Shown here piece by piece: positions 40,001 to 63,123 of a DNA stretch of 64,000 nucleotides. This DNA comes from a virus. Below the pieces are notes generated by a model, which saw only the letters and a list, made by a program, of their open reading frames with translations, was not told where the DNA came from and did no database searches. The number at the start of each line of letters is the position of its first letter. The stretch's first letter is position 1. The position numbers were made by a program, and so were the translations under genes. Where the stretch lies: IMG/VR virus record IMGVR_UViG_3300032325_000466, positions 62,001 to 126,000 of that record. The stretch is one strand, 5' to 3'.

Positions 40001-43000
40001 CTGTGGGTACTGGAACAGGTGTAGTATCAACTGTATTTGGCGATGTAATTGCTAATATAGAGTTTTATGTTACTACTGTTATTGACGCAGAGAATTTTAC
40101 AATGTCTTATACCAGTACTCCTACTGAGACAACTCTGTATGCAACTACTGCTGGAACAAATTATGTGACTGTAGAAAGCGTAAATGGATTTAATGTAAAT
40201 GATCCTATAATCTTTACTAATATGCAAATTGCAGGTACTAGGGTTACAGACTTTGGAAATATCCAAGCAGGCATAGTTTACTATGTACAGTCAATAATTA
40301 ATGGTACTCAAATTCAAATTTCTACTCAATTTAATGGTGCAGCGTTAACCCTTACTACAGTGGCAGTAGCAACCGACACTAATGGTACAATAACTAATCA
40401 AAGTGAGAATGTACAATTAAATAATGCAATTGGAGAAATGACTTTAGTAGCTGGTCTGCCAATTAGCCCTGGTCAAATTAATGGCCAACGATTTGCCTTT
40501 TACCCAACCTCAAACGCATTCACTGGTGTTAGTGGTATAACAAGTGACTTATTAACAAGAACTATTACAGCAGCAGTAAGTACCAATAATGGTTTATATT
40601 TAGCTATCAGTACTGGTGGAATATCGGATGTGTATATAAATATGCCGTTTATAGTTCAAACAGCAATTGGTGGATTGTTGACAGGTACTACATATTATGT
40701 TAGAAGTACAGGCACATTAACCACTACTGTAACCAATACTACTACTTCTACTAACAGGTTAACTTGTAGTACAACAGCAGGATTTTATGAAGGTATGGCA
40801 ATAAAATTCTCAGGTGCGGTATTTGGTGGAATAACTCCAAATCTTACATACTTTATATTATCAATAGTTGATGGAAACACATTTACTATTTCTAATGACA
40901 TAGGCGGTACTGAAGTTACTCTATCTACTAGTGTTGGTAGTATGCTGCTGACCGGGGAACAGTATATCACTGTAAATGATGGAGCAGGCTCCCAAGTATT
41001 CTTATCTGATGATATTGCTTTCGTCACTCTAGACCAGTACCCAACCTCACCCCCAACATTCAATGTTGGATATACTGCAGGTGGATATTTCGTACAAGTA
41101 GCAACTCCAGGTACAGGTTATGCAGTAAACAATACTATTACGGTTGATGGTGCTCAATTAGGTGGAGAATCAGGTACAAATGATTTAACAATGACAGTAT
41201 ATGAAATATCATCAATTGGTGAAGTTGTTACAGTTATTAGTACCGGTGCACCAGCTGGAATAAATGCAAATTATTACTTAAAAGTCATATCAGAATATGA
41301 ATGTGAACTTTACTACAACTCATCATTATCTATTCCAGTACCAGGATCACAATTCCCATTTAATGGTATTACTCAAACTACAGTTACTGGGGTAACTGCT
41401 GCAACCAATGAACTTACTGTAAACAGTTCAGCGAGTTTTGCTATTAATGACCCTGTTGTATTCACTGGAGATGTATTTGGTGGAATGATATTGGGAGAAA
41501 CTTATTATATTAAAACAAAACCATCACCAACAACAGTAACTATTTCAACATTCCCAAATGGTACAGTATTTGATATTACCGCAGATGAGACAGGCGATTG
41601 TATAATGGCTACTGTAGGCGATGTTAGCTTATTGCCTGACCCATTCTATGCTACTCAAAGTATAGTTATTTACAATAACAAAGTATATCAGTGTGCAGTA
41701 AGTAACAACGATGATGATTTTGTTTTCCGTAAATGGCAATTAATGGACAGTGGGGATAGACAATTAAACGCACTTGACAGAATAGTGGGCTACTATCAAC
41801 CTACTATTAATATGCCTGGTCTAGATCTTACACAGTTAGTAGCTAATATTGTTTACCCAAATAATACTTACTTAGATAACGCATTTGCTCCAGCAGATGA
41901 GTACCCCTATGATACACTACTATTAGATAACACCTTTACTCAAGTCAATGACAATATATACACAGTACAGGGTGATGAATTTACGGCTGGTTATGGTCCT
42001 GAAGAATTAGTACCAGGCATAGTAACTGACAATCTAACAATGATTGTAAAAACACGCCCAGGTAGTAATTGGGAATCTACTGTTTATCAGAATGTGGGAT
42101 ATAATTCAGTTTCTACCGAGATTACTCCAGCACAACCTGATCAAGTACTATACTCATTTGTAAATGTTGTAATAAACCCAATACAAATATCAGTGTTTGA
42201 TATTGATACTACCACAAAACTAAGCACAAGATTGTATGATTACACTATAGATTGGATTAATAAAGTAGTTACACTATCTACTCCGCTAGCAGAGAACCAC
42301 ATACTTAGAATTGATGTATATGAAGTAGGTAATGGTGACCAGCTAGTTCGTTCAAATTCACAAACTACCCCATTCTTCTTAAATGAAGATACTCAATTTA
42401 GTGAAATTTATTTAGACTGCCTCTACTCTGCTTCTATCACTAATGGATCAGGATTAATCATACCTGGTAGTGCACCAAGTTCAATTGAAGCAATTGAAAC
42501 CAGCGCAACAGATAACACTATTTTATGCTTATCAGTATCTTCATTTACTCTTAATGCTCCAATTACTTTCCAAGGCGCAGTTTTTGGCGGTGTCGCACTA
42601 GACACTACATACTATGTTAAAACAGCAAGCGCAATTACAGACAGAATAACAATATCTGATACACTAGTTGCTGGTATAGCAGGTCCTACCCTAACGCTAA
42701 CATCAGCTACAGGTAGTATGCAAGCGATTATTCAAGCTGATAACGGTTTAGTTTGGACAGATCCAATCATTGTTCATAATGGTACAAGATTAACATTGGG
42801 TGAGCAAAGCTTTGTCACACAAACTAAGAGTAGCACAAATTCAATAGTTTGTAACTCTACGGCTCACTTTGACTTAAATGATACCGTTACTTTTAGTGCA
42901 ACAATGTTTGGTGGCATTATACAACCTAACACGGTATACTATATCGCTACCATCGTAGATGATAACGATTTTACTATTTCAGAAACTCTAGGTGGACCTA

Positions 43001-48528: not shown

Positions 48529-48978
48529 GTTCGTTGAAAGGTTCATCATAAGCACATACGCTGATAGCAAGCGACTAAGGCAGCTATGCGAAATCTTAGT
48601 TTAATGTGTGCTTTTGATGAATCAGTAGAGGAATTCGTTGAGGGTAACCTCTAGAAGTCGTTATTGGACTAGCTGTGGACGTGGGTTCGATTCCCACCGG
48701 GTCCACCAAAAGTATACTACTTGATTGGTTGACTACCCAAGGTTATCGTTGATAGAGAATTAGTCGCTCAGTAGATAACAAGTGTACTTCTGATGGGCCT
48801 GACCTGGTTTCGACATGGTTAGAAAGGAACGATTAGAATCGGCAATGTTAAAGCCGTTAGGGTTGGGATTTCTCGGCCGTAGAGACAAAAAACTATAAAT
48901 GCTAACGCATCTAACGATGAGGTTTTCGCTCTAGCAGCGTGATCTCCGGGGTTGACAACCTTGTAACCAAATAGTCAG
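48529..48978 (+). ncRNA. ssrA: Circularly permuted (two-piece) tmRNA
   Basis: Transfer-messenger RNA, which rescues stalled ribosomes and tags the nascent peptide. The acceptor piece comes first: a T-arm (GTGGG-TTCGATT-CCCAC) and CCA at 48706-48708. The coding piece starts at 48795 with GGGCCTG, followed by the tmRNA-typical GGTTTCGACATGG. The two ends pair into a 7-bp acceptor stem (GGGCCTG with CGGGTCC), and helix P2 forms between 48828-48834 (AACGATT) and 48656-48662 (AGTCGTT). The tag frame at 48901-48942 reads ANASNDEVFALAA then TGA, with the usual ALAA-type degradation end. The 86-base spacer at 48709-48794 has complementary ends (AAGTATACT with AGTGTACTT) and would be removed. An upstream stem (48542-48556 with 48607-48621) probably belongs to the acceptor-piece precursor; the exact mature ends are not certain. 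Confidence 0.92.
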
Positions 48979-48979
48979 G

Positions 48980-49005
48980 AAAGGCTCGCAAGGGCCTTTT
49001 CTTTT
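48980..49005 (+). terminator. Terminator of the tmRNA gene
   Basis: Stem AAAGGCTC, loop GCAA, GGGCCTTT, then TCTTTT. Nearly the same 26 bases occur again at 49585-49610. Confidence 0.75.
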
Positions 49006-49010
49006 GGCAG

Positions 49011-49018
49011 CATAAATA
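49011..49018 (+). promoter_or_regulatory. Late promoter-like CATAAATA, five bases before the GNAT gene
   Basis: CATAAATA, then CTAGC, then the ATG at 49024; it matches the leaderless N5 arrangement and lies just past the tmRNA terminator. Confidence 0.6.
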
Positions 49019-49023
49019 CTAGC

Positions 49024-49569
49024 ATGAACATCAAAGAAATAATCACCGAAGAAGTAGTTGCCGAATACTGGACCACTGGAAGGGGTACTACAAAACAAGG
49101 TATTGATATGGGTGACATGATAAAATCTCAAGTTGAGCTGGTCAACACCCCATTAACTCAACTTAATGTTAGATATTCCCCTTTTAGTAATTCTGCAAAA
49201 ATACATGAATATTATCTATACGATAAAGAAACTGATAAGTGCGTTGGGTATTTTTTCGTAGAAATGCAAAATAAAAAATTTGATAAAGTATTGAAACCTG
49301 GTATTAGCGCAGTAATTCCCCATATAGGACTAGCACTCCGCGTTCAAGGTAAGGGTATAGCTAGTCAAATTTATACAACATTTTTACGAGGTGGTCCATG
49401 GGTGTTCGTAACTGAATCGCATAGTAATGCAGCCGCAGCACTTTGGGACAGGATAGCAACTGGTGATATCATTGAAGTTTATGTTGATGCAAAAACCGAA
49501 AAACGAATTGAAAATTCAAAGAGTGTGATCGATTATAGAATGATTGGTCCAAAAGATAGGTTCCTCTAA
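49024..49569 (+). CDS. GNAT-fold acetyltransferase-like protein
   Basis: A 181-residue protein with an N-terminal MNIKEIITEEVVAEYW helix common in phage virion-associated proteins, then a GNAT-like domain: EYYLYDKETDKCVGYFFVEM strands, the acetyl-CoA loop RVQGKGIASQIYTTFL (R/Q-x-x-G-x-G/A type, near residues 110-125) and the FVTESHSNAAAALWDRIATG closing helix. The substrate is unknown; it could modify a host or virion protein, or be a structural GNAT relative. The gene stands alone with its own late promoter and terminator, between two nearly identical terminator copies. Confidence 0.7.
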   Translation: MNIKEIITEEVVAEYWTTGRGTTKQGIDMGDMIKSQVELVNTPLTQLNVRYSPFSNSAKIHEYYLYDKETDKCVGYFFVEMQNKKFDKVLKPGISAVIPHIGLALRVQGKGIASQIYTTFLRGGPWVFVTESHSNAAAALWDRIATGDIIEVYVDAKTEKRIENSKSVIDYRMIGPKDRFL

Positions 49570-49677: not shown

Positions 49678-50460
49678 ATGAAAAAAATTCTAATGTGCGA
49701 TCCCCGATTCTTTGGGGTTACTTATGATATCAACCCATGGATGTCTAGTAATATTGGGTGTGTAAATCAATCACTTGCTCGTGAACAATGGACTCTATTG
49801 CGAGATGCTATCTCAAGTGTAACTGAAGTAGAAGTATTGCCGGGAGTAGAAAATTTACCCGATTTAGTTTTTACTGCCAATGCTGGCATTGTTAGAAAAA
49901 ATCAAGCAATCGTAGCTAAGTTTAGCAAATCTGAACGGCGTGCAGAAGAAGAGCATTTTAAAAAATGGTTTAGTGAGCATAAGCTAATCACTGTTCAAAC
50001 TGTTCATTCATATGAGGGTGAAGGTGATCACCTAGTAGATAAATTAGGCCGTCATTGGCTGGGTACTGGCTTTAGAACAGATGGTAAAGTAGCTGAAGAA
50101 TTGACTAGAATTCTATGGGTTCGTATGAATACATTAGAGTTAGTTGATCCTCGCTGGTATCATTTAGATACTTGTTTTGCACCTTTACCATATGGTGAAG
50201 TAATTTGGTATCCTGGTGCATTTTCAGAGAGTAGCCAACAACTTATTCGCAGCGCATTTAGAACTAGGATAGAAATAAGTGAAGAAGATGCTAGTGCATT
50301 TGCTTGCAATTTGGTAGCACTGGGTAATAATATCTTTCTTCCCAAGAACTTTGGTGCATCAGACCGATTACAGGGTCTTGGTTACAAAGTCCAAGAATTT
50401 GATTTAAGCGAATTTATGCGAGCAGGTGGCGCAGCCAAATGCTTGACGCTATACTATTAA
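49678..50460 (+). CDS. DDAH/amidinotransferase-family enzyme (arginine-modifying hydrolase)
   Basis: A 260-residue member of the guanidine-modifying superfamily (dimethylarginine dimethylaminohydrolase, arginine deiminase, amidinotransferase). Active-site elements are all in place: DLVFTANAG (62-70), EGEGDHL (113-119), His162 in WYHLDTCF and the nucleophile Cys255 in GGAAKCLTL. The start MCDPRFFGVTYDINPWM is typical of DDAH-like proteins. The size fits a free hydrolase. A phage could use it to release citrulline/ornithine and amines or to alter host arginine pools; the exact substrate cannot be told by eye. It has its own promoter and terminator and so behaves as an independent accessory gene. 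Confidence 0.8.
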   Translation: MKKILMCDPRFFGVTYDINPWMSSNIGCVNQSLAREQWTLLRDAISSVTEVEVLPGVENLPDLVFTANAGIVRKNQAIVAKFSKSERRAEEEHFKKWFSEHKLITVQTVHSYEGEGDHLVDKLGRHWLGTGFRTDGKVAEELTRILWVRMNTLELVDPRWYHLDTCFAPLPYGEVIWYPGAFSESSQQLIRSAFRTRIEISEEDASAFACNLVALGNNIFLPKNFGASDRLQGLGYKVQEFDLSEFMRAGGAAKCLTLYY

Positions 50461-50481
50461 ATCTTATTTGGGATAATTAAC

Positions 50482-50506
50482 GGGGGCAATAGCCCCTATT
50501 TTTTTA
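50482..50506 (+). terminator. Terminator after the DDAH-family gene
   Basis: GGGGC, loop AATA, GCCCC, followed by TATTTTTTTA. Confidence 0.8.
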
Positions 50507-50577
50507 TCCAATGCGGATGCTGAGATTAAATAGAGTTACTAATCTTTGCATACGATAACTATATAAGGGAGATAGAA

Positions 50578-50877
50578 ATGACAAAAGTGTATATGGTTGA
50601 TATAGATAACACTATCTGCATAAGCAAAGGTAATGACTATGCTAACAGCGAACCATTAATAGATCGTATTGCAAAAATAAATGAGTTGGTAAAACAAGGT
50701 CACAAAGTCATTTATTGGACAGCGCGAGGCAGTAGCAGTGGAATAGATTGGACAAACGAAACACACAGTCAACTAACAGCCTGGAACTGTGAATACCATG
50801 AAATTCATATGGGAAAACCATCATATGATATATGGATAGACGACAAGGCTATTAATTCAGAGGATTTTTTCAAGTGA
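50578..50877 (+). CDS. Small HAD-family phosphatase
   Basis: A 99-residue haloacid-dehalogenase-type protein with the catalytic DIDNT (Asp8, Asp10, Thr12), motif II in VIYWTARG, and the IWIDDKAIN acidic motif near the C-terminus. It lacks a cap domain, as in small capsule/LPS-linked phosphatases. Because the next genes encode heptose-pathway enzymes, it may take the GmhB role (removing a phosphate from a heptose bisphosphate), but this is inference. It has a GGGAGAT ribosome-binding site and overlaps the following gene by four bases (GTGA). Confidence 0.75.
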   Translation: MTKVYMVDIDNTICISKGNDYANSEPLIDRIAKINELVKQGHKVIYWTARGSSSGIDWTNETHSQLTAWNCEYHEIHMGKPSYDIWIDDKAINSEDFFK

Positions 50878-52865
50878 ATATTTTAATTTTCTCCCACAGT
50901 TGTAATCTCGGCGGAGCAGAGAATGCACTAATTTGTTTGGTATCAGAATTAAGTGCTAAACATACAGTAACAATATCTTTCCCTAATGCACAAGGTCCAC
51001 TAATAGATTATTTTACTAGAAAGAATATTAGATGCGTGTCGTTACCTCTAGGATTCTCCCTCCCCAATCCACATGACGCCTTGGTTAAGTTTTCACAAGT
51101 ATGTAATGATAATGTAATCGAACAAATACGAGAATTAAATTTCGACATGATCATATGCAATACTATAGTTACTTTGCATGGATTACTATTAGCAAAAATT
51201 TTAAAAATTCCAAGTATATTGTATGCACATGAAAAATTAGAGTTTGATACTGATTTAGCACCTCACGGATGTTCCTCTAGGTTTTATTTAGATTTGGTGG
51301 GAATGGCGTCCAATCATATTATGTGTACCTCCGAGTATGTTAAAAAATCATTTACTCAATTTAATAATAAAGCTAGTGTATTGTATATGTTTGATCAACA
51401 TATACAGTCGATAGAAACACCAGTTATGAATGATGACTTGGTTTCTATTTCGGTGATAGGTATAAAATCGATTAGAAAAAACACGCATTTCGCAATAACG
51501 GTATTAAAAGCCTTGCGTCTAAGGGGAATGAACGCTGAATTACATTTAATTGGTCAAAATGGTTCTGGAATGCATTTATTAGAGCAGAAGTTAAAAATTC
51601 GCGGAGAACCAAATATCCATGTATACCCTAATCAACCCGATCCGTATGCAATTGGAAAAGGTAAAAAGATAACATTAATAACAGCTATTTGTGAACCGTT
51701 TGGATTAACCATGATGGAATCATTGTTCAGGGGTATCCCTGTTGTTGCATCGAAATGCGGTGGCCCGGAAGAGGTATTACCAAAATCATATCTATATGCA
51801 GTAAATGATTTGGAGTCATGTGTTCGAAATATAGAAGAAGTGGTGTCAAACTATAAAACTCACGCTAATACGGCTAAGAAAACTTATAACAATTTTATAA
51901 AAAAACATCCTAAAAAAGAAATATCTGATGTTATCTCATCGGCAATTGACAGCGCAAAACAGGATTTTAGTAAAAATGGTAACGGATCTACTTCAATTAA
52001 GTGGGAAGATTTTAAATTCTTGGTAGAAAGTCCATTGTCCAATGAGGATATTGTAAAAAATATAGCAGAAGTTACAAAGACCACTACTGATGTCATAGAA
52101 ATTCAATTGACAAAAGAACGTGTAACACCCGGGATATCCGTGCTGAATGATATTCGTAAGTTTGATGTTGTCCCCTATACCATATCCGACAACTTGACAA
52201 ATCTTTACAAAGAAGGCACCGGACTAGCAATTGAATTATTATCTTCTATAGGTGATAGTGGAAAAATTTCCATGCTAAGTTATATATTGTTAGCTCTAAA
52301 AGAAAAACAACAGATTAACCCAATAAAAAAAGTACTGTGTTTAGGCGATGGTATAGGAATAGATGCGATTAGGTTTGCACAATGCGGATATGAGGTTGAT
52401 TATCTTGATTTTGATTCTTCAAAAATGGCAAAAATTGCAGAATTAAACTTTAAAAAAATTAAAGAAAATAATCCCACACTAAAATTAAACATTGTAAAAA
52501 CGCCCACACAAAAATATGATGTAATTATATCACTTGAAGTTATCGAGCATGTAGACGATCCTGTTGATTTTTTAAAGTTTATTCATAGTATGATGAACGA
52601 TGATGGATTTTTGTTTATTTCCGAATGTTTTGATGGTATATATGATGTTTGGCCTACACATATACTAAAACATGAAGAATTTTCTAATTTACTACCTTTA
52701 TTGGCAAGTCCTTACTTTAAATTAGTAGATATAAATAACACCTACTTTGGAAAACCATATATGTTTCAAAAAATAGACGCAGTGTCATCTGATGTATTGG
52801 ATTTTCTAAAAAATAGAGAATGGGTGATAAATTTTATAAATACAAAACTTAAAATTGGAATTTAA
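50874..52865 (+). CDS. Fusion of GT4 glycosyltransferase and SAM methyltransferase
   Basis: A 663-residue two-enzyme protein starting at GTG. Residues 1-345 are a GT-B family 4 glycosyltransferase: HSCNLGGAENALICLV at the N-terminus, a YAHEKLEF segment, and the nucleotide-sugar site EPFGLTMMESLFRGIPVVAS with CGGPEEVLP. After a linker, residues about 480-640 are a class I methyltransferase: VLCLGDGIGIDAIRFAQCGY (SAM loop), DYLDFDSS, IISLEVIEHVDDP and FISECFDG. One protein could thus add and then methylate a sugar on a surface glycan or on a virion protein. It is coupled to the HAD gene and followed by the heptose kinase. Confidence 0.85.
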   Translation: MNILIFSHSCNLGGAENALICLVSELSAKHTVTISFPNAQGPLIDYFTRKNIRCVSLPLGFSLPNPHDALVKFSQVCNDNVIEQIRELNFDMIICNTIVTLHGLLLAKILKIPSILYAHEKLEFDTDLAPHGCSSRFYLDLVGMASNHIMCTSEYVKKSFTQFNNKASVLYMFDQHIQSIETPVMNDDLVSISVIGIKSIRKNTHFAITVLKALRLRGMNAELHLIGQNGSGMHLLEQKLKIRGEPNIHVYPNQPDPYAIGKGKKITLITAICEPFGLTMMESLFRGIPVVASKCGGPEEVLPKSYLYAVNDLESCVRNIEEVVSNYKTHANTAKKTYNNFIKKHPKKEISDVISSAIDSAKQDFSKNGNGSTSIKWEDFKFLVESPLSNEDIVKNIAEVTKTTTDVIEIQLTKERVTPGISVLNDIRKFDVVPYTISDNLTNLYKEGTGLAIELLSSIGDSGKISMLSYILLALKEKQQINPIKKVLCLGDGIGIDAIRFAQCGYEVDYLDFDSSKMAKIAELNFKKIKENNPTLKLNIVKTPTQKYDVIISLEVIEHVDDPVDFLKFIHSMMNDDGFLFISECFDGIYDVWPTHILKHEEFSNLLPLLASPYFKLVDINNTYFGKPYMFQKIDAVSSDVLDFLKNREWVINFINTKLKIGI

Positions 52866-52885
52866 ATTTATGAAGGCATATTAAA

Positions 52886-53854
52886 GTGATAGTAACATCA
52901 TGTCCTTTAAGGATATCATTAGTAGGAGGATCAACTGATCATCCACATTTTATTAATAAGTACGGACAAGGATCTGTCATCAGTTTCCCTTCAACTCTTC
53001 GGACTTATATAACTATTCACCAAGATATTTTTGGTAGTAATTCTATAGGTAATAATTATCATATTAACTATAGCAAACGAGAAACGGTAAAAAAAGTATC
53101 CGAAATTCAAAATGAATTAATACGATATTGTTTTGAATATCTCAACGTAGATAAAATGAATTGCAGTTTAACCTCTGATATTTACAGTGCCGGTTCAGGT
53201 TTAGCAGCAAGTTCTTCTTATTTACAAGCATTAATAAAAGCCATATATGTATTGCGTGAAGAACATATAACTGAATTCGAAGTATGTAAAATGGCAGAAA
53301 TTATAGAAAGAAATTTTAATCCATTGGTAGGCCAACAAGATTTCTATGGTAGTATTGGTGGATTGAAACGAATTGATTTCTTTAAAAACAGTGACCCTAG
53401 CATCCGTTATTTAAGTACAAACATATTCAAACAATTGAACATATATTTACTATATACAGGAGTGTTACGCAGTAGTACCAATATATTAGAAAGTATAAAT
53501 ATAGACAAATCAGTGCCTTTATTGCAAGATGTTGAAGATTTAGAGATAGCTATAAAAAATTGTGATATTGAAATGTTTAGTAATGTTATCAATCGCGGCT
53601 GGGAAAATAAAAAAGCTACTAGCAATTTAATATGCGAATCTTCTACACTTGAAGAATTAGATAGTAAACTCAAAAATGATCCTGATATACTAGCACACAA
53701 ATTATGCGGTGCTGGTAATGGTGGATATTTTTTAATTTTTACTAATTTGAATAGTGGATTTGATTCAGCTAAATATGATATGATGAAAGCTATCAGCTTA
53801 TCAGAAACCGGACTAAAATATATTAATTTAAAAAATGAATTTACAAAACTTTAA
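52886..53854 (+). CDS. hddA: GHMP-family sugar kinase, HddA-like (D-glycero-D-manno-heptose 7-phosphate kinase)
   Basis: A 322-residue GHMP kinase starting at GTG. Seen: the N-terminal PLRISLVGGSTDHPHF, the phosphate-binding SAGSGLAASSSYLQALIKAI, GQQDFYGSIGGLKRIDF and the C-terminal CGAGNGGYFLIF. This combination is typical of HddA, which phosphorylates heptose 7-phosphate at C1 on the way to GDP-heptose. It is followed with a 20-base overlap by a GmhA-like isomerase that makes the substrate, which strengthens the call. The final nucleotidyltransferase (HddC) is not in the window. Confidence 0.83.
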   Translation: MIVTSCPLRISLVGGSTDHPHFINKYGQGSVISFPSTLRTYITIHQDIFGSNSIGNNYHINYSKRETVKKVSEIQNELIRYCFEYLNVDKMNCSLTSDIYSAGSGLAASSSYLQALIKAIYVLREEHITEFEVCKMAEIIERNFNPLVGQQDFYGSIGGLKRIDFFKNSDPSIRYLSTNIFKQLNIYLLYTGVLRSSTNILESINIDKSVPLLQDVEDLEIAIKNCDIEMFSNVINRGWENKKATSNLICESSTLEELDSKLKNDPDILAHKLCGAGNGGYFLIFTNLNSGFDSAKYDMMKAISLSETGLKYINLKNEFTKL

Positions 53855-54332
53855 ACATTGTCTTGACAATATAAATCAAGATGACCTATATAAATTAAAA
53901 CAATACATTCTTGGTGCAAAAAACGTAATTATTTTGGGTAATGGTGGCAGCAATGCTGTTAGTTGTCATATTGCACAAGATTATACAAAGGCGTTAGGAA
54001 TCAGAGCTACAGCATTTGGAGACAGTTCCAGAATGAGTTGTTATGCTAATGATTATGGTTGGGAGAATGCGTATACTAAATATTTAGAACATTTCGCAGA
54101 TTCGGATACCATAGTGATACTAATATCATCTTCTGGTAACTCACAAAATATACTTAATGCTGCTGGATACTGTGCGGGTAAACATGATATGATTACTCTA
54201 TCCGGATTTAATCATGCCAATAAATTAAGAACAGTGTATGGTCCATTATCTTTGTTACATTTTTACATCCCCAATACTGATTATGGAATTGTAGAATTAC
54301 TTCACGAACTTATTTTACATTCTGTTATATGA
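53835..54332 (+). CDS. gmhA: Sedoheptulose-7-phosphate isomerase-like SIS protein (GmhA-like)
   Basis: A 165-residue SIS-domain protein. GmhA landmarks are ILGNGGSNAVSCHIAQDYTK, SSRMSCYANDYGWENAYTKY and ILISSSGNSQNILNA, with the C-terminal IVELLHELILHSV carrying the acidic/His residues. GmhA turns sedoheptulose 7-phosphate into D-glycero-D-manno-heptose 7-phosphate, the substrate of the kinase encoded just before it. It is slightly shorter than bacterial GmhA (about 190), with the N-terminal helix reduced. The start lies within the end of the kinase gene. Confidence 0.85.
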   Translation: MNLQNFKHCLDNINQDDLYKLKQYILGAKNVIILGNGGSNAVSCHIAQDYTKALGIRATAFGDSSRMSCYANDYGWENAYTKYLEHFADSDTIVILISSSGNSQNILNAAGYCAGKHDMITLSGFNHANKLRTVYGPLSLLHFYIPNTDYGIVELLHELILHSVI

Positions 54333-54397
54333 AAATGTTTGTAACAAAAGTGAATTGAACACTTCGTCATCAGGCACCCAAATAACTAAACTTTTTA

Positions 54398-54426
54398 TTG
54401 ACACCAGCATACAAACGATGCATAAT
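54398..54426 (+). promoter_or_regulatory. Sigma70-type promoter of the porin gene
   Basis: TTGACA at 54398-54403, a 17-base spacer and CATAAT at 54421-54426. The leader of about 36 bases ends in an AAAAGGAATAT ribosome-binding site. Confidence 0.65.
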
Positions 54427-54468
54427 CAGTATGCAAAATACATTTTCACAACTTTAAAAGGAATATAA

Positions 54469-55176
54469 ATGAAAAAAATCTTACTAGCATCACTAATCAT
54501 GGCTGCATTTGGTAGCGCACACGCTCAAGTAGCAGGTCTATCAGGAAACCTAGGTCTAACTACTGACTATCGTTTTCGTGGTATTTCTCAAACTCAAAAT
54601 GGTGCAGCCGTTCAAGGTGGCATAGACTACGCTCATAAGAGCGGCTTTTATGTTGGCAACTGGAACAGTTCAGTTAGTAGCGCACTATTTCCCGCTAGCG
54701 CCGGCATCGAAAGCGATCTATATCTAGGCTTTAAGAAAGAAGTTTTCAAAGGCGTAACAATCGATGTTGGTACAATGAGCTATGTTTATTCACGCGCATC
54801 AAGCTTTGGTACTAGCGAAGTTTATGCTGGTGTAGGTTATGGTCCAGTTACTGTAAAAGTTAGCCAATCACTAAGCAACTATTTTGGTGTAGCAGATAGC
54901 GTAGGTTCACGCTACTACCAAGCTGACCTAGCACAGCCAATCACTAGCAAGATCACTCTAGGTGCTCATGTTGGTCGTACATTTGTCAATAACAACACTT
55001 CACTAGACTATACTGACTATCGTGTTGGTGCATCTTATAACGCAGCTGGTTGGGTATTTGGTGCAAATTTCCACACTAACAACAACTATGGTAGCAGTGC
55101 TAAAGCTGCTATGACAGTTGCAGGTCAGTCACTATACAAAAACACCGTTGTACTATCAGTAGCAAAATCATTCTAA
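54469..55176 (+). CDS. TorF-family putative outer-membrane porin
   Basis: A 235-residue secreted beta-barrel protein. It has a clear signal peptide, MKKILLASLIMAAFGSAHA, with cleavage likely before QVAG. The mature part matches the proteobacterial TorF/gcw_chp family: LGLTTDYRFRGISQTQNGAA, VQGGIDYAHKSGFYVGNWNS, SDLYLGFKKEVFKGVTIDVG, SEVYAGVGYGPVTVKV, and it ends in an aromatic residue (AKSF) as outer-membrane barrels do. Codons look different from neighbours (many AGC and CTA), suggesting capture from a host. With its own sigma70 promoter and terminator it is a self-contained gene. It is not an obvious virion protein and probably goes into the host outer membrane. Confidence 0.85.
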   Translation: MKKILLASLIMAAFGSAHAQVAGLSGNLGLTTDYRFRGISQTQNGAAVQGGIDYAHKSGFYVGNWNSSVSSALFPASAGIESDLYLGFKKEVFKGVTIDVGTMSYVYSRASSFGTSEVYAGVGYGPVTVKVSQSLSNYFGVADSVGSRYYQADLAQPITSKITLGAHVGRTFVNNNTSLDYTDYRVGASYNAAGWVFGANFHTNNNYGSSAKAAMTVAGQSLYKNTVVLSVAKSF

Positions 55177-55190
55177 TACTTTACTAATCA

Positions 55191-55219
55191 AAATAAGGGC
55201 TTTGTAGCCCTTATTTTAC
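55191..55219 (+). terminator. Terminator of the porin gene
   Basis: An 11-bp stem, AAATAAGGGCT, loop TTGT, AGCCCTTATTT, followed by TTA. Confidence 0.8.
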
Positions 55220-55242
55220 CCTTTACTTAGGAGAACACACAC

Positions 55243-55692
55243 ATGTCAGTCACACTAAAAAATTTAGAATCGGCTTTAGCCGGTGAATCTATGGCACATA
55301 TCAAGTACCGATATTTTGCCAAACTAGCCCGAGCAGAAGGCTATGAAGAAGTAGCCAAACACTTTGAACACACTGCTGACCAAGAGCTACTACATGCTTG
55401 GGGTCATCTTGAACTGCTAATTGGTAAACCATCTACTAAAGAATGTTTGGAAAAAGCAATCGAAGGAGAGACCTACGAGTTCACCGTGATGTATCCAGAG
55501 TTCGAAGCAGTTGCTAGGAACGAAGGAAATGAAGAAGCAGTTCGTGAAGCCGTGGAACAAATCGCTGAATCCATGGAACATGCCGCACAATTCGCAGCAG
55601 TTTTGGCTAAAGCAGAAAAGCGTTTTTCAGCACTCAAGCGTGTAGAAGAGCGTCATGCAAATGCTTATAAACAAACTTTAGGGAGTCTATAA
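55243..55692 (+). CDS. Rubrerythrin-type diiron protein without rubredoxin domain
   Basis: A 149-residue ferritin-like four-helix protein. Diiron ligands are spread as in rubrerythrin: ESMAHIKYRYFAKLA with Glu15 and the His/Tyr that follow, the E-x-x-H in DQELLHAWGHLE, a third Glu in YPEFEAVARNEGNEEA, and the last helix EQIAESMEHAAQF. Rubrerythrins reduce hydrogen peroxide. The usual C-terminal rubredoxin domain is missing here but is encoded by the next frame, which overlaps the stop by one base. The GGAG ribosome-binding site is good. The pair would protect infected cells from peroxide or shuttle electrons at low oxygen. Confidence 0.85.
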   Translation: MSVTLKNLESALAGESMAHIKYRYFAKLARAEGYEEVAKHFEHTADQELLHAWGHLELLIGKPSTKECLEKAIEGETYEFTVMYPEFEAVARNEGNEEAVREAVEQIAESMEHAAQFAAVLAKAEKRFSALKRVEERHANAYKQTLGSL

Positions 55693-55826
55693 TGAGAGAA
55701 CAATACGCATGTGTCATTTGTGGCCATCAACATGATGAAGAAACAGAAGGTAAATGGGAAGACTTACCTGAAGATTTTATGTGCCCTGAATGCGGCGGAC
55801 TAAAACAAGACTACGAAGCTATTTAA
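55692..55826 (+). CDS. Rubredoxin (separate 44-residue electron carrier)
   Basis: A 44-residue protein with the rubredoxin iron site: C-V-I-C (7-10) near the start and C-P-E-C (31-34) near the end, plus the family's EDLPEDFMCPECG and a terminal DYEAI. It is shorter than a typical 52-residue rubredoxin because the loop between the Cys pairs is trimmed. The ATG overlaps the rubrerythrin stop (TAATG), so the two products should be made together and act as donor and enzyme. A terminator follows directly. Confidence 0.88.
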   Translation: MREQYACVICGHQHDEETEGKWEDLPEDFMCPECGGLKQDYEAI

Positions 55827-55832
55827 TTACGG

Positions 55833-55865
55833 GCCCGCAAGGTAAAATTTGCCTTTGCGGGCTTT
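55833..55865 (+). terminator. Terminator after the rubrerythrin-rubredoxin pair
   Basis: GCCCGCAAGG and CCTTTGCGGGC form a GC-rich stem with one bulge, followed by a short TTT. Confidence 0.7.
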
Positions 55866-55908
55866 CCTATATGTAATTTGCATGTAATACTTAGTATTGT
55901 TAAAATAC

Positions 55909-55916
55909 GATAAATA
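55909..55916 (+). promoter_or_regulatory. Late promoter-like GATAAATA, five bases before the PlcP-like gene
   Basis: GATAAATA, then TTAGT, then the ATG at 55922; it matches the leaderless N5 arrangement. No ribosome-binding site is visible. Confidence 0.6.
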
Positions 55917-55921
55917 TTAGT

Positions 55922-56701
55922 ATGACAAAAAAATATAGAACAATAACAGTCAGTGATGTGCATCTGGGCACCAAAAATTGTAAAGCCGAACTACTTGTAG
56001 ATTTTCTAAGTGAAAACACTTGTGAAACACTGTATTTGGTTGGTGATATAATCGATGCATGGAAAATCCAACAGAATAGGCTAAAGTGGCGCCAAAGCCA
56101 TACCGATGTTGTTCGTAAAATTCTAAAACATGCTAGAAATGGTACTAAAGTAATTTATGTAGCAGGCAATCACGACGAGTTTTTAAGACCAATGATACCA
56201 TATGGTGTTAGCTTTGGTACCATTGTAATATGCAATCAAGCTACTCATATCGGCGCAGATGGTAAAAAGTATTTAGTAGTACATGGCGATTTGTTTGATG
56301 GTATCACTAGATTAGCGCCATGGTTAAGTTTCTTAGGCGACAGAGCATATGATGTTATTTTGGATCTAAATAGCAGGTTCAATTGGATTAGACATCGTAT
56401 GGGTTTTGGTTATTGGAGCTTAAGCCAATTCTTAAAACACCGAGTAAAAAAAGCTATTGATTTTATGTTTCAGTTTGAAAGAACTATTACCGCTTATGCC
56501 AAGAAGCGTGGTTTTCAGGGCGTAATATGTGGGCATATACATAAAGCTGAAATTAAAGAAGTAAATGGTATTACATACATGAATGATGGTGACTGGGTAG
56601 AAAGTTGTACCGCCCTAGTAGAACATCATGATGGCAGTTGGGAAATAATACGTTGGGCACAGGACAAAAAAGATGTGGCTGATGATTCTTCTAGCAGTTA
56701 A
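55922..56701 (+). CDS. plcP: PlcP-like metallophosphoesterase (LpxH-related, COG2908 type)
   Basis: A 259-residue calcineurin-type phosphoesterase with all metal motifs: SDVHLG (Asp12, His14), GDIIDAW (Asp42), GNHDEF (Asn83, His84), VVHGDLFDG (His121) and CGHIHKA (205-207). It resembles LpxH but follows the PlcP pattern instead: YWSLSQFLKHRVKKAI, FERTITAYAKKRGFQGVICG and NDGDWVESCTALVEHHDG. PlcP cuts phospholipid head groups to yield diacylglycerol during phosphate starvation in Sinorhizobium and marine bacteria. The adjacent glycosyltransferase (Agt-like) would then glycosylate the diacylglycerol. The substrate is inferred; a UDP-diacylglucosamine hydrolase remains possible. Confidence 0.75.
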   Translation: MTKKYRTITVSDVHLGTKNCKAELLVDFLSENTCETLYLVGDIIDAWKIQQNRLKWRQSHTDVVRKILKHARNGTKVIYVAGNHDEFLRPMIPYGVSFGTIVICNQATHIGADGKKYLVVHGDLFDGITRLAPWLSFLGDRAYDVILDLNSRFNWIRHRMGFGYWSLSQFLKHRVKKAIDFMFQFERTITAYAKKRGFQGVICGHIHKAEIKEVNGITYMNDGDWVESCTALVEHHDGSWEIIRWAQDKKDVADDSSSS

Positions 56702-58930: not shown

Positions 58931-59440
58931 ATGAGTATTGTATTAGAAGCAAGCTTATCCAGAGTTTGGCAACATTTTAATAGTGACCGCCCAGTTGCAT
59001 TGCTAACTGGTTTTAGGGGTGAGTACACTAGAGAAGAGAATCTGCGTAGAAACGCGGCTTTAGCGGCCGACATTAGAAATCTTGGCCTTGGGTTCTTTTA
59101 TGTAGATGGATACTGGATAGAAAATCAGGGCACTCCCGAAGAACGCAAAGTCAGTGAAGATAGTATTTTTGTAATAGGTGAACCTAGTACTGATGAAAAA
59201 TTTTTGGACACTATTGTAAAATTTGGCCGTCAGTATGATCAAGATGGCGTCTTGGTAAAAACAGAAGATACTGTAGCTATCTATGATAAGAATGGTGAAG
59301 TGCTGTACCCGCTCAATAAATTGAATCCTGGAAAACTGGGAACAATGTATACTAAACTAAGAAATAACAAACATACCAATACCTTTGTCTTTACTGAAGA
59401 ACGGGTTGATCGTGGTTGGGCCGGCCGTTTTACCGCTTGA
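58931..59440 (+). CDS. Early phage protein, DUF3293-like pattern
   Basis: A 169-residue protein. Its N-terminal half, PVALLTGFRGEYTREENLRR, NAALAADIRNLGLGFFYVDG and the following SEDSIFVIGEP, resembles the DUF3293 layout (a TxxxP/R strand, conserved Asn/Asn-rich helix, a G-x-W-x-E turn, then a strand ending in V-x-G), but this is a by-eye resemblance. The second half is more variable (TKLRNNKHTNTFVFTEERVD). Function is unknown. An AAGGAAAAA ribosome-binding site precedes the ATG. Confidence 0.6.
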   Translation: MSIVLEASLSRVWQHFNSDRPVALLTGFRGEYTREENLRRNAALAADIRNLGLGFFYVDGYWIENQGTPEERKVSEDSIFVIGEPSTDEKFLDTIVKFGRQYDQDGVLVKTEDTVAIYDKNGEVLYPLNKLNPGKLGTMYTKLRNNKHTNTFVFTEERVDRGWAGRFTA

Positions 59441-59459: not shown

Positions 59460-59855
59460 ATGAATGCTTGGAGTCATCTACCCAACGCGACACATATAGA
59501 CCGCATATTGGCTTCAGTACACGCAAATCCCAAATTATGGGAGCAGGCATGGGTGCAGGTATGGCTGCCGGCATGGAATAAGGCAAGGGTGCAGGTATGG
59601 AAGCAGGCAAGGGATCAGGCATGGGATCAGGCAGGGTATCAGGCAAGGGATCAGGCAAGGGATCAGGCAAGGGATCAGGCAAGGGGTACCATACTTGCAC
59701 TGATTGCATATGATGATTCAGCCAAGTACCTAAATCTTCCCATTGACCAACTACAAATGCTTTACCATTTGACTGAACACCCAGCTTGTATTTTACTACA
59801 ACCAGCCGTTGTTGCATTTGCGATGGAAAAGGAACGAGAACTGGCCCAAGGTTGA
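59460..59855 (+). CDS. Protein with a 12-unit tetrapeptide repeat
   Basis: A 131-residue protein. Residues about 28-76 consist of twelve four-residue units of the x-Q-A-W/R kind (VQVW, KQAR, DQAW, DQAR), encoded by a 12-base DNA repeat. The flanks look like a normal folded domain: MNAWSHLPNATHIDRILASV before, and LALIAYDDSAKYLNLPIDQL with CILLQPAVVAFAMEKE after. Proteins with such WDQAR-type runs recur in phage genomes, function unknown. The antisense frame here gives only a Pro-rich shadow. No promoter of its own is seen; it follows the preceding gene by 19 bases. Confidence 0.7.
   Translation: MNAWSHLPNATHIDRILASVHANPKLWEQAWVQVWLPAWNKARVQVWKQARDQAWDQAGYQARDQARDQARDQARGTILALIAYDDSAKYLNLPIDQLQMLYHLTEHPACILLQPAVVAFAMEKERELAQG
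59543..59688 (+). repeat. 12-base tandem repeat, about twelve units
   Basis: Units of the form AGGCAAGGGATC. The last 3.8 units (59641-59686) are perfect and the earlier ones degenerate. The period keeps the reading frame, so copy number can change without frameshift. Confidence 0.9.
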
Positions 59856-60263: not shown

Positions 60264-60292
60264 TTGACAATAAATCCCTGATTCTATATAAT
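60264..60292 (+). promoter_or_regulatory. Early sigma70 promoter of the MoxR gene (shared 12-base -35 block)
   Basis: TTGACAATAAAT beginning at 60264, with TATAAT at 60287-60292, spacer 17, and an AGGAG ribosome-binding site before the ATG. Confidence 0.8.
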
Positions 60293-60324
60293 CACTTCAC
60301 ACTTAAACAACAGGAGTAGCAAAA

Positions 60325-61428
60325 ATGGCTTCATCAGTTTCAGACAATCTTACGCTTACCTCAGTTCAGGTCCGCAAAGCATTGCTCAAGTCTTTCAAGG
60401 TTCAGCGTCCCATCTTTCTTTGGGGTCCTCCCGGTATCGGCAAGAGTGAGGTTGTTGCTGAGATTGCCCAAGAACTGGGCGGTCATATGATCGACCTGCG
60501 TATGTCGCAAATGGAACCCACTGACATTCGTGGTATCCCTTTCTATAACAAAGAACTGGGCAAGATGGATTGGGCTCCCCCAATCGAACTTCCTGATCAG
60601 GAACTGGCTGACCAGTTCCCCATTATCGTACTCTTCCTCGATGAGATGAATGCAGCCCCGCCAAGTGTGCAGGCCGCAGCGTATCAGCTTATTCTCAACC
60701 GTGGTGTTGGTAAGTATCGTCTGCCCAAGAATGTTGTGCTGGTTGCTGCAGGTAATCGTGAGTCAGACAAGGGCGTAACTTATCGTATGCCCAAGCCCCT
60801 TGCTAATCGTTTCTTGCATTTGGAAATGCGTAGTGACTTTGCTTCATGGCAGACATGGGCAGTGGATAAAAAGATTCACAAGGACGTGGTTGGTTACTTG
60901 AGTTTTGCTAAACAGGATCTAAACGACGATTCTAATAGCAACTCCAGCAGCCGAGCTTTCCCAACTCCCCGTTCGTGGTGCTTTGTCAGCGACCTACTTG
61001 ATGACGACGACACTGATACCGATACTCTGTTCAATCTGGTTGCAGGTGCAGTTGGTGACGGTCTGGCAGTCAAGTTTATGGCTCATCGCAAAGTGTCCGG
61101 CAAAATGCCCTCGCCCACTGACATTCTGTCTGGCAAGGTCATGGACCTGCAAGTCAAGGAAATCTCGGCAATGTACTCGCTGACCATTTCTATGTGCTAC
61201 GAACTGAAAGATGCACTGGATAACAAGCGGGTCAGCAACAAAGAGTTCCATGTGATGGCTGATAACTTCTTCAACTATATCATGGCTAACTTCGAAACGG
61301 AGCTGGTTGTTATGGGTGCAAAGATTGCCCTCAAAACTTACAAGCTGCCCATCGATCCCGTTCAACTCAAGAATTTCGACACTTTCCATAAGAAATATGG
61401 CAAGTACATTGTCGAAGCAGGCAACTGA
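60325..61428 (+). CDS. MoxR-type AAA+ ATPase
   Basis: A 367-residue AAA+ chaperone ATPase. Walker A is GPPGIGKS (34-41), Walker B VLFLDEMNAAPPSVQ (Asp107, Glu108), sensor 1 AAGNRESD (Asn144), followed by the arginine-finger region RMPKPLANRFLHLEM. The order and the DEMN-type Walker B fit the MoxR group, which works with a VWA-domain partner to insert cofactors or remodel target complexes. The partner is encoded two genes downstream (61777). It uses its own early promoter. Codon use is GC-richer than the virion genes. The target is unknown; in a phage it may remodel a host complex. Confidence 0.88.
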   Translation: MASSVSDNLTLTSVQVRKALLKSFKVQRPIFLWGPPGIGKSEVVAEIAQELGGHMIDLRMSQMEPTDIRGIPFYNKELGKMDWAPPIELPDQELADQFPIIVLFLDEMNAAPPSVQAAAYQLILNRGVGKYRLPKNVVLVAAGNRESDKGVTYRMPKPLANRFLHLEMRSDFASWQTWAVDKKIHKDVVGYLSFAKQDLNDDSNSNSSSRAFPTPRSWCFVSDLLDDDDTDTDTLFNLVAGAVGDGLAVKFMAHRKVSGKMPSPTDILSGKVMDLQVKEISAMYSLTISMCYELKDALDNKRVSNKEFHVMADNFFNYIMANFETELVVMGAKIALKTYKLPIDPVQLKNFDTFHKKYGKYIVEAGN

Positions 61429-61449
61429 TTGGTGTCAGTTGTCTACTCA

Positions 61450-61502
61450 GGTAAGAGGTAATACTCTTACCCCTAGGGTGAGAATATTCTCACCCTTTTT
61501 TT
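61450..61502 (+). terminator. Tandem hairpins with T-run after the MoxR gene
   Basis: The first hairpin is GGTAAGAG-GTAATA-CTCTTACC (61450-61471). The second is a 20-base perfect palindrome from GGGTGAGAAT to ATTCTCACCC (61476-61495), followed by seven T. This is a very strong terminator. Confidence 0.85.
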
Positions 61503-61515
61503 AAGGATAGTAAAA

Positions 61516-61719
61516 ATGATCGATACAAAAAAATTCAAAGTGATTTTTGATACCAATATTCTTGACCGAGAGCTTGGTACGGAACAGGAAATGGAAAATC
61601 TTACTACAGAAATCCAACTGTATATCGATGAACTGGATATTGGTCCTGAAACCGATATGGATTTGGTCCTAATGGATGCACTGGACAGCATTTTGGGCGA
61701 ACATAGGGTTCTTCATTGA
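61516..61719 (+). CDS. Small acidic protein, function unknown
   Basis: A 67-residue acidic protein (FKVIFDTNILDRELGTEQEM, LYIDELDIGPETDMDLVLMD). No family is recognised. It has an AAGGATAG ribosome-binding site. It lies 13 bases after a strong terminator and no promoter box is visible in between, so its expression would depend on read-through of the hairpins. It sits between the MoxR gene and its VWA partner, so it may belong to that system. Confidence 0.6.
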   Translation: MIDTKKFKVIFDTNILDRELGTEQEMENLTTEIQLYIDELDIGPETDMDLVLMDALDSILGEHRVLH

Positions 61720-61722
61720 AGG

Positions 61723-61751
61723 TTGACAATAAATACGGACACTGCTATAAT
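61723..61751 (+). promoter_or_regulatory. Early sigma70 promoter of the VWA gene (shared 12-base -35 block)
   Basis: TTGACAATAAAT beginning at 61723, with TATAAT at 61746-61751, spacer 17; AAAAGGATC precedes the ATG. Confidence 0.8.
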
Positions 61752-61776
61752 AGCAGTATCATAGAAAAGGATCGAC

Positions 61777-63123
61777 ATGACTATTAGCGCACTTTCAGAT
61801 TTTCGCAGTTACCCCATCTCTACTCTGCCCATTCGCATGAGTGAGGTAATCAATCCAACCAAAAAGCGTAAGCGTAGCAAAAAGTTTGAAAAATTGGTTG
61901 GCCCAACCGATCCCAAGATCGATGCACAAGCCCGCGAGCGTTTGGTTACTGCCCGTATTGGTCTGCTTCTACGCCATGCTTTCTTTGGCAATTTGGCTAC
62001 TAGGTTGACTCTCATCAATGCCGATGAGTGGTGCTCTACTGCTGCCACAGACGGTCAAAAATTCTACTACAATAGCCGCTTCATTATGATGCTGAAGGTC
62101 AAGGAAGTAGAATTCCTTGTAGGTCATGAAGTGCTGCATGTGGTCTATGATCATATGGATCGTAGAGTTGACCGTGATCCGCAGATTTGGAATATCGCAG
62201 TAGACTATGCGGTTAACGCGGACCTTAAACGGCATAGCGTTGGTCAGATGATTACCACGGTGCCCTGTTTGTATGAACTAAAATACGACGGCAAGCCTGC
62301 TGAGGAAATCTATGACGACCTCATGAAGAATGTTCAGAAAATCTCTATCGATGACCTTATCGATCAAATGGTCGACGACCATATGGAATCTGATGAAGAT
62401 GGCACCGGTGACGGCGAAGGTGATGAAGAAGGCAAAGGCAAGCGTCCCAAGATGTCTGCTGAAGAGCGCGAGCGGGTACGTCAGGAAGTAAAACAGGCTA
62501 TTATCAATGCTGCCAGCAGTGCTGAAGCAGGCACTATGCCCAAGGGTGTAGAGCGCATGATCAAGCAAATTACCAACCCAGTTATGCCCTGGCCCGAACT
62601 GATCCAAACTAATCTGACCAGTGCAATCAGGTCTGACTATTCATTTATGCGTCCCTCACGCCGCAGTTGGCACATGGATGCAATCATGCCCGGTACTAAT
62701 CCCGGTGAGGAAATTGATGTTCATATCGCTATCGATATGTCAGGCTCGATTGGTGCTGCACAGGCTCAAGTGTTTCTGGGTGAGATTGCTGGCATGATGG
62801 ACTCATTCGACGGTTACAAACTGCATGTATTTTGTTTCGATACCGAAATCTACAATCCTCAGAATTTTACTTCTGAGAATATGGATACGATTGATTCTTA
62901 TGTTCCGCAAGGTGGTGGCGGTACTGACTTTGATGTTATCTTTAGTTACCTAAAAGAAAACGCTATGGATCCCAAGCGACTGATTGTATTCACTGACGGG
63001 TATCCTTGCGGTAGCTGGGGAGATGCGAACTATTGCGACACTACTTGGATCATTCACGGCGACCCCGATCCTAGTCCCCCGTTTGGTCAGTATGCAATTT
63101 ACTCGGACCATAAGAAAGGTTGA
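61777..63123 (+). CDS. Metallopeptidase-like and VWA-domain protein (MoxR partner)
   Basis: A 448-residue protein of the DUF2201-type layout. The N-terminal half has a zinc-peptidase-like HEVLH motif (His117, Glu118, His121 in EFLVGHEVLHVVYDHMDRRV) followed by IWNIAVDYAVNADL. About 205-245 is an acidic then charged linker (MESDEDGTGDGEGDEEGKGK). The C-terminal half is a von Willebrand A domain with the MIDAS motif DMSGS near residue 319 and GGGGTDFDVIF near 385. Such proteins act with MoxR ATPases. Whether the HExxH site cuts protein or only binds metal is unknown. It has its own early promoter matching that of the MoxR gene. Confidence 0.85.
   Translation: MTISALSDFRSYPISTLPIRMSEVINPTKKRKRSKKFEKLVGPTDPKIDAQARERLVTARIGLLLRHAFFGNLATRLTLINADEWCSTAATDGQKFYYNSRFIMMLKVKEVEFLVGHEVLHVVYDHMDRRVDRDPQIWNIAVDYAVNADLKRHSVGQMITTVPCLYELKYDGKPAEEIYDDLMKNVQKISIDDLIDQMVDDHMESDEDGTGDGEGDEEGKGKRPKMSAEERERVRQEVKQAIINAASSAEAGTMPKGVERMIKQITNPVMPWPELIQTNLTSAIRSDYSFMRPSRRSWHMDAIMPGTNPGEEIDVHIAIDMSGSIGAAQAQVFLGEIAGMMDSFDGYKLHVFCFDTEIYNPQNFTSENMDTIDSYVPQGGGGTDFDVIFSYLKENAMDPKRLIVFTDGYPCGSWGDANYCDTTWIIHGDPDPSPPFGQYAIYSDHKKG

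What the first reader, a model, noticed from the sequence alone, without database searches (positions are those of the whole stretch)
60264..63123. MoxR ATPase with a metallopeptidase/VWA partner under matching early promoters
The two proteins have near-identical early promoters although separated by a strong terminator and a small acidic gene. MoxR-VWA pairs remodel or activate target complexes in bacteria and occur in some conflict systems. An early phage version with an HExxH site could dismantle or inactivate a host complex.
Basis: partly seen in the sequence, partly recalled or inferred. Interest (0 to 1): 0.7.

Follow-up and report, generated by a model that had tools for sequence, protein, structure and literature searches.

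The report
Phage MoxR–VWA/zincin gene pair
A large phage carries a motor protein (MoxR ATPase) and its metal-binding partner (a zincin fused to a VWA domain), a pair found side by side in hundreds of very different phages; it probably remodels a protein complex early in infection, but its target is unknown and the pair itself was already described.

Summary
60325-61428 encodes a complete MoxR-type AAA+ ATPase; 61777-63123 encodes a DUF2201_N zincin fused to a MIDAS-intact VWA domain. Each has its own exact TTGACAATAAAT-N11-TATAAT promoter, with a hairpin terminator and a phage-specific small ORF between. The pair is not new: it is homologous to the MoxR–metallopeptidase-vWA pair described by Iyer et al. 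2021 in jumbo phages and to N4 gp24/gp25, core genes of unknown function. Added here: (1) linkage in 76/76 close and 59/59 more diverse viral loci with room to see it; (2) both promoters are conserved across the clade and shared with about 20 other sites, none directly before a recognised virion gene; (3) recurrent placement beside thymidylate synthase/DHFR/dCTP deaminase in three phage lineages; (4) the label 'HNH endonuclease' (PHROG 1314, many RefSeq records) is unsupported. Timing and neighbourhood favour an early/middle remodelling role over the published virion-assembly proposal, although the ATPase was detected in PA5oct and, inferred from gene order, phAPEC6 particles. Verdict: new member of a known kind.

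The parts
60264..60292 (+). promoter of the MoxR gene, TTGACAATAAAT-N11-TATAAT, exact consensus
   Evidence: conserved upstream of MoxR in 46/50 distinct relatives at >=10/12 against 8% background
60325..61428 (+). MoxR-family AAA+ ATPase, 367 aa
   Evidence: Pfam/PHROGs; AF2 model pLDDT 88.9, best Foldseek matches NorQ/NorQD and CbbQ2 MoxR ATPases
60424..60447 (+). Walker A (GPPGIGKS, residues 34-41)
   Evidence: P36, G37, K40 and S41 invariant in 44 viral homologues
60631..60648 (+). Walker B (LFLDEM, residues 103-108)
   Evidence: E107 invariant in 44 homologues
61475..61502 (+). intrinsic terminator between the two genes (9-bp stem, T-run)
61516..61719 (+). small ORF (67 aa) in the gap; phage-specific insert, probably not part of the system
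   Evidence: homologue only in near-identical locus L003; no family match
61723..61751 (+). promoter of the zincin-VWA gene, exact consensus
   Evidence: 48/61 distinct relatives at >=10/12 against 9% background
61777..63123 (+). DUF2201_N zincin fused to C-terminal VWA domain, 448 aa
   Evidence: Pfam; AF2 model pLDDT 78.1, pTM 0.53; VWA part matches solved VWA domains, Z about 13 over about 135 residues, rmsd about 2.7
62125..62163 (+). zinc site HEVLHVVYDHMDR (residues 117-129)
   Evidence: H117, E118, H121, H126 invariant in 46 homologues
62734..62748 (+). MIDAS DxSxS (residues 320-324); T383 and D407 complete the site
   Evidence: D320, S322, S324, T383, D407 invariant in 46 homologues

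Best explanation
The two genes encode one remodelling machine of the MoxR-VWA type. The MoxR protein forms an ATP-driven AAA+ ring; the partner docks on it, its VWA/MIDAS domain recognises a client, and its zincin domain binds zinc and may cleave or hold the client. It is made early or in mid-infection, before virion production, and acts on a protein complex of the pre-replicative phase (host or phage; not identified). Shown: intact motifs, VWA and AAA+ folds in predicted models, linkage, co-divergence, promoter conservation, neighbourhood. Inferred: ring formation, complex formation, zinc binding, timing in this phage, client.
For: Pair linkage 76/76 and 59/59 loci; distance matrices of the two proteins correlate at r = 0.97 over 36 phage pairs against a permutation maximum of 0.35; catalytic and MIDAS residues invariant; closest folds for the ATPase include MoxR NorQ solved with its VWA partner NorD. 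Timing: sigma-70-type promoters of the class used by a methyltransferase, a helicase, an RNA ligase and small genes; in the strict scan none sits immediately upstream of a recognised virion gene and none lies in 33.4-120.5 kb of the contig, where head, portal and several tail genes are; AR9 homologues g028-g029 sit behind an annotated early promoter; N4 gp24/gp25 are stated to be middle transcripts (PMC4193335). Neighbourhood: thymidylate synthase 2-4.6 kb downstream in 77/81 clade loci and in both RaK2-type loci; dCTP deaminase directly downstream in 17/17 and thymidylate synthase near in 16/17 N4-like loci.
Against: The ATPase was seen by mass spectrometry in PA5oct (EST35_0335 note 'ESI-MS/MS') and in phAPEC6 virions if gp265c is the MoxR homologue, as gene order suggests. 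No expression data exist for this phage. PA5oct- and Phosso-type phages lack the thymidylate-synthase neighbour. Chromosomal homologues are linked too, but their neighbours were uninformative about the client.
Confidence: 0.58

Rival explanations
1. Virion-assembly chaperone plus processing protease, as proposed by Iyer et al. 2021 by analogy with the Acidianus two-tailed virus MoxR-VWA tail-assembly system: the pair remodels and clips structural proteins.
For: ATPase detected in PA5oct and, by gene-order inference, phAPEC6 particle preparations; published proposal (PMC7824862); four RPP1 virion proteins lie near the gp24/25 homologues (PMC4193335).
Against: Early-type promoters in this clade and AR9, middle transcripts in N4; nucleotide-metabolism neighbours; the phAPEC6 list also holds soluble enzymes such as thymidylate synthase, RecA-like protein and SSB, so presence there is weak evidence; the VWA partner is not in that list by inferred gene number, nor flagged in PA5oct.
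Confidence: 0.25
2. One reading: an early host-takeover device that dismantles or cleaves a specific host complex. It is a sub-case of the best explanation, with a host client and active proteolysis.
For: Early-type promoter class; invariant HExxH; lies near an S-adenosylmethionine lyase-like gene.
Against: No host client known; a pair this conserved across phages of very different hosts is unlike typical host-specific takeover genes; adjacency to phage nucleotide enzymes makes a phage-side client equally possible.
Confidence: 0.22
3. Enzyme-maturation factor: like NorQ-NorD, CoxD-CoxE or chelatase AAA+/VWA pairs, it loads a metal or activates a phage enzyme of DNA-precursor synthesis.
For: Fold match to NorQ; placement beside thymidylate synthase/DHFR/dCTP deaminase; the phage encodes ribonucleotide reductase.
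Against: Recognised neighbours are not metal-cluster enzymes; no such neighbour in PA5oct- or Phosso-type loci; mechanism only by analogy.
Confidence: 0.12
4. The downstream gene is an HNH homing endonuclease, as PHROG 1314 and many RefSeq entries call it.
For: PHROG 1314 label; labels in many records.
Against: Pfam finds only DUF2201_N and VWA in the protein, while the same library finds HNH at once in a true HNH gene of this phage; no HNH-like or CxxC pattern.
Confidence: 0.01

Closest known systems
MoxR-vWA(metallopeptidase) pair of group 2.2 jumbo phages (Atu_ph07 ASV44729.1/ASV44728.2; Iyer et al. 2021)
   Same: Same two-gene order and domain make-up; homologous along nearly the whole length (38.7% and 35.9% identity).
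   Different: Here each gene has its own early-type promoter and a terminator lies between; the published functional guess (virion assembly) fits the promoter class poorly.
N4 gp24/gp25 (Schitoviridae core genes)
   Same: Homologous pair in the same order, same motifs; core and of unknown function.
   Different: N4-like members are 24-30% identical to this pair; genes often nearly touching; embedded in the RNAPII-transcribed middle region beside dCTP deaminase.
Bacillus phage AR9 g028/g029
   Same: AAA ATPase plus 'zincin-like protease fused to vWA domain' behind one annotated early promoter.
   Different: Phage with two multisubunit RNA polymerases; its early promoter is read by the virion RNAP (PMC5312081); sequences very divergent.
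Chromosomal MoxR-DUF2201 pair of bacteria
   Same: Same domain make-up and adjacency (28 of 30 fetched loci).
   Different: About 36%/30% identity to the phage proteins and mostly a separate branch in the trees; function also unknown.
NorQ-NorD and RavA-ViaA
   Same: MoxR ATPase with VWA partner; fold match for the ATPase to NorQ.
   Different: Their VWA partners carry no DUF2201_N zincin (own knowledge); clients are respiratory enzymes.

Membership tests
MoxR AAA+ ATPases | AAA+ core with Walker A/B, sensor 1 and arginine finger | tested here: met
   fold
MoxR AAA+ ATPases | gene linked to a VWA-domain gene | tested here: met
MoxR AAA+ ATPases | hexameric ring and ATPase activity directed by the VWA partner | not testable with these tools
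   needs purified proteins
VWA domain | VWA fold with complete MIDAS (DxSxS, T, D) | tested here: met
   invariant residues; Z about 13
DUF2201_N putative metallopeptidases | profile match above curated cut-off and HExxH site | tested here: met
   139.2 bits against cut-off 23.2; HExxH and H126 invariant in 46 aligned homologues; pattern check on 135 homologues
DUF2201_N putative metallopeptidases | zincin fold of the N-terminal domain | tested here: inconclusive
   model confident there but VWA matches fill the fold lists; only a weak sequence match to MJ1213
DUF2201_N putative metallopeptidases | peptidase activity | not testable with these tools
   needs an assay
HNH endonucleases (current label of PHROG 1314) | HNH profile or motif | tested here: not met
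   positive control
MoxR-vWA ternary conflict systems (bpMoxR) | bpMoxR profile above cut-off | tested here: not met
   21.4 bits against cut-off 27
Known anti-phage defence systems (PADLOC) | convincing match to a system protein | tested here: not met
   only partial, weak generic ATPase matches (best DolB, 26 bits), none for the partner
Jumbo-phage MoxR-metallopeptidase-vWA pair (Iyer et al. 2021) | homology of both genes, order MoxR then vWA, metallopeptidase fused to vWA | tested here: met

The most novel reading that the evidence does not exclude
A deeply conserved, early-expressed AAA+/zinc-protease machine that phages of several unrelated lineages use to unfold and cleave one widely conserved host complex at take-over, which would explain why N4 gp24/gp25 are core genes.
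Probability: 0.18. Interest if true: 0.82.

Novelty: new member of a known kind. Interest (0 to 1): 0.42.

Why it matters
The pair is very widespread among phages (either gene in about 720-800 phage records), has no known function and is often misnamed 'HNH endonuclease'. Placing it in the early/middle phase beside nucleotide-metabolism genes gives a concrete alternative to the published proposal (virion assembly), and the question can be decided in coliphage N4, a laboratory model.

Tried and rejected
HNH label: rejected. Small ORF in the gap as a third component: rejected, only in one near-identical relative. A T4-like late promoter (TATAAATA) near the pair or the structural genes: no enrichment. 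Depletion of early-type motifs per ORF in the structural block by a loose scan: not significant (Fisher p = 0.33), so I rely only on the strict promoter list. Inverted repeat over the -10 of the VWA promoter as an operator: present here but not conserved (6/40 against 0/41). Cellular neighbours as functional clue: HDOD, S4, adenylate kinase and others, not consistent. My strict Walker A pattern missed many homologues; the alignment shows K40/S41 invariant, so this is a pattern artefact. The genome-contig scan mostly returned what look like viral contigs in MAGs. No fold match for the zincin domain appeared in the lists, which VWA matches fill. CRISPRi-ART paper: no N4 gp24/gp25 data found in its main text. 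PA5oct transcriptome paper not held.

Full report
What is there. The window is 62001-126000 of a 191 kb virus record, a T4-related myovirus by its major head protein, portal, SbcCD (gp46/47)-like nuclease, UvsX-like recombinase and tail sheath. At 60325-61428 it encodes a 367-aa MoxR-type ATPase and at 61777-63123 a 448-aa protein with an N-terminal DUF2201_N putative metallopeptidase and a C-terminal VWA-like domain. All expected motifs are intact. The AF2 model of the ATPase is good (pLDDT 88.9) and its best solved matches include NorQ, alone and with its VWA partner NorD, and CbbQ2. The VWA half of the partner matches solved VWA domains at Z about 13; the Midasin MIDAS domain is in the Foldseek list. 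The zincin half is supported by the Pfam profile and the invariant HExxHxxxxH, not by a fold match.

The promoters. Exact copies of TTGACAATAAAT-N11-TATAAT lie at 59852, 60264 and 61723. The consensus is not peculiar to the pair: the contig carries about 20 copies, most on the left-arm minus strand in front of small genes, a DNA methyltransferase, a helicase and an RNA ligase. None of the strict copies lies in 33.4-120.5 kb, where head, portal and several tail genes are, and none sits directly before a recognised virion gene. Across 80 close relatives from IMG/VR both genes keep their own such promoter (46/50 and 48/61 distinct upstream regions at >=10/12, background 8-9%); in several loci with the shortest gaps the second gene has no such promoter. 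So the 'matching early promoters' are real and conserved, but they are one promoter class of the phage. That this class is early is inferred from its sigma-70 form.

Co-occurrence. In every IMG/VR locus with room upstream the MoxR gene precedes the VWA gene on the same strand: 76/76 close relatives and 59/59 in Phosso-like, PA5oct-like, RaK2-like, phage G and N4-like contigs; some loci are near-duplicates. In annotated phages tblastn finds the ATPase in 798 and the partner in 720 records. In a Vequintavirus (Ro1) the two lie about 4.6 kb apart on opposite strands, the one exception seen. The two proteins' tree distances correlate at 0.97 over 36 phage pairs (permutation maximum 0.35); much of this is expected from joint descent, but it excludes frequent partner swapping.

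Neighbourhood. Thymidylate synthase lies 2-4.6 kb downstream in 77/81 clade loci, often with DHFR, and also near in the two RaK2-type loci; in N4-like phages a dCTP deaminase directly follows the VWA gene (17/17) and a thymidylate synthase of either type is close in 16/17. PA5oct- and Phosso-type phages have RNase H or DNA polymerase I nearby instead. These are pre-replicative modules.

Literature and membership. Iyer et al. 2021 (PMC7824862) described this pair in group 2.2 jumbo phages and proposed virion assembly with peptidolytic processing, citing the archaeal ATV precedent. Their example proteins ASV44729.1/ASV44728.2 are the Atu_ph07 pair, which is homologous to the window pair. N4 gp24/gp25 are two of 14 core genes of N4-like phages, counted among those without known function, and are said to be middle transcripts (PMC4193335). 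AR9 g028/g029 sit behind an annotated early promoter. Phage 0305phi8-36 has a MoxR pair too (PMC2147016). A homologous pair is chromosomal in bacteria: DUF2201_N above cut-off in 61/185 genomes of one class, with MoxR adjacent in 28/30 fetched loci.

Virion or early? Against an early-only role, the PA5oct ATPase carries an 'ESI-MS/MS' note, and phAPEC6 gp265c 'ATPase' was found in virions. Its position six genes from thymidylate synthase (gp259c) is the same as in RaK2 (053 to 059), so I infer it is the MoxR homologue. But the phAPEC6 list also has thymidylate synthase, RecA-like protein and SSB, so soluble early/middle proteins reach such preparations, and the VWA partner (expected gp264c) is not listed. 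On balance promoter class, N4 and AR9 timing and neighbourhood favour an early/middle client; I give this 0.58, virion assembly 0.25.

Misannotation. PHROG 1314 and many RefSeq entries call the partner 'HNH endonuclease'. Pfam finds no HNH in it, while it finds HNH at once in a real HNH gene of this phage. The label appears to trace to an early annotation of a roseophage-like ORF (RaK2 note) and should go.

Verdict. Real, conserved, already described; the value is in the evidence on timing, the breadth of distribution, the correction of the label and a decisive experiment in N4.

Noticed in passing
window 48600-49033 (+): A transfer-messenger RNA gene in a phage: ARAGORN tmRNA with tag ANASNDEVFALAA; Rfam matches both the permuted tmRNA and the betaproteobacterial tmRNA models above gathering score. 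Suggests a betaproteobacterial host or origin.
   Followed up: partly
window 58931-59440 (+): S-adenosylmethionine lyase-like protein (PF23780, 37.6 bits over cut-off 28), a candidate anti-restriction gene close to the pair and downstream of the same promoter class.
   Followed up: no
window 54469-55176 (+): TorF-family putative outer-membrane porin encoded by the phage (NCBIfam TIGR02001).
   Followed up: no
window 49678-56701 (+): Cluster of host-like metabolic genes: arginine dihydrolase/dimethylargininase-like, heptose kinase- and GmhA-like, rubrerythrin-like and LpxH-like proteins; may modify host surface or metabolism.
   Followed up: no
window 28003-45111 (+): A single 5702-aa ORF of 17 kb in the tail gene region.
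   Followed up: no
window 61733-61760: The -10 box of the VWA promoter lies in a perfect inverted repeat ACTGCTA-TAA-TAGCAGT; not conserved in relatives.
   Followed up: yes
window 59460-59855 (+): ORF with a run of ARDQARDQ-type repeat units directly upstream of the pair's promoter cluster.
   Followed up: no
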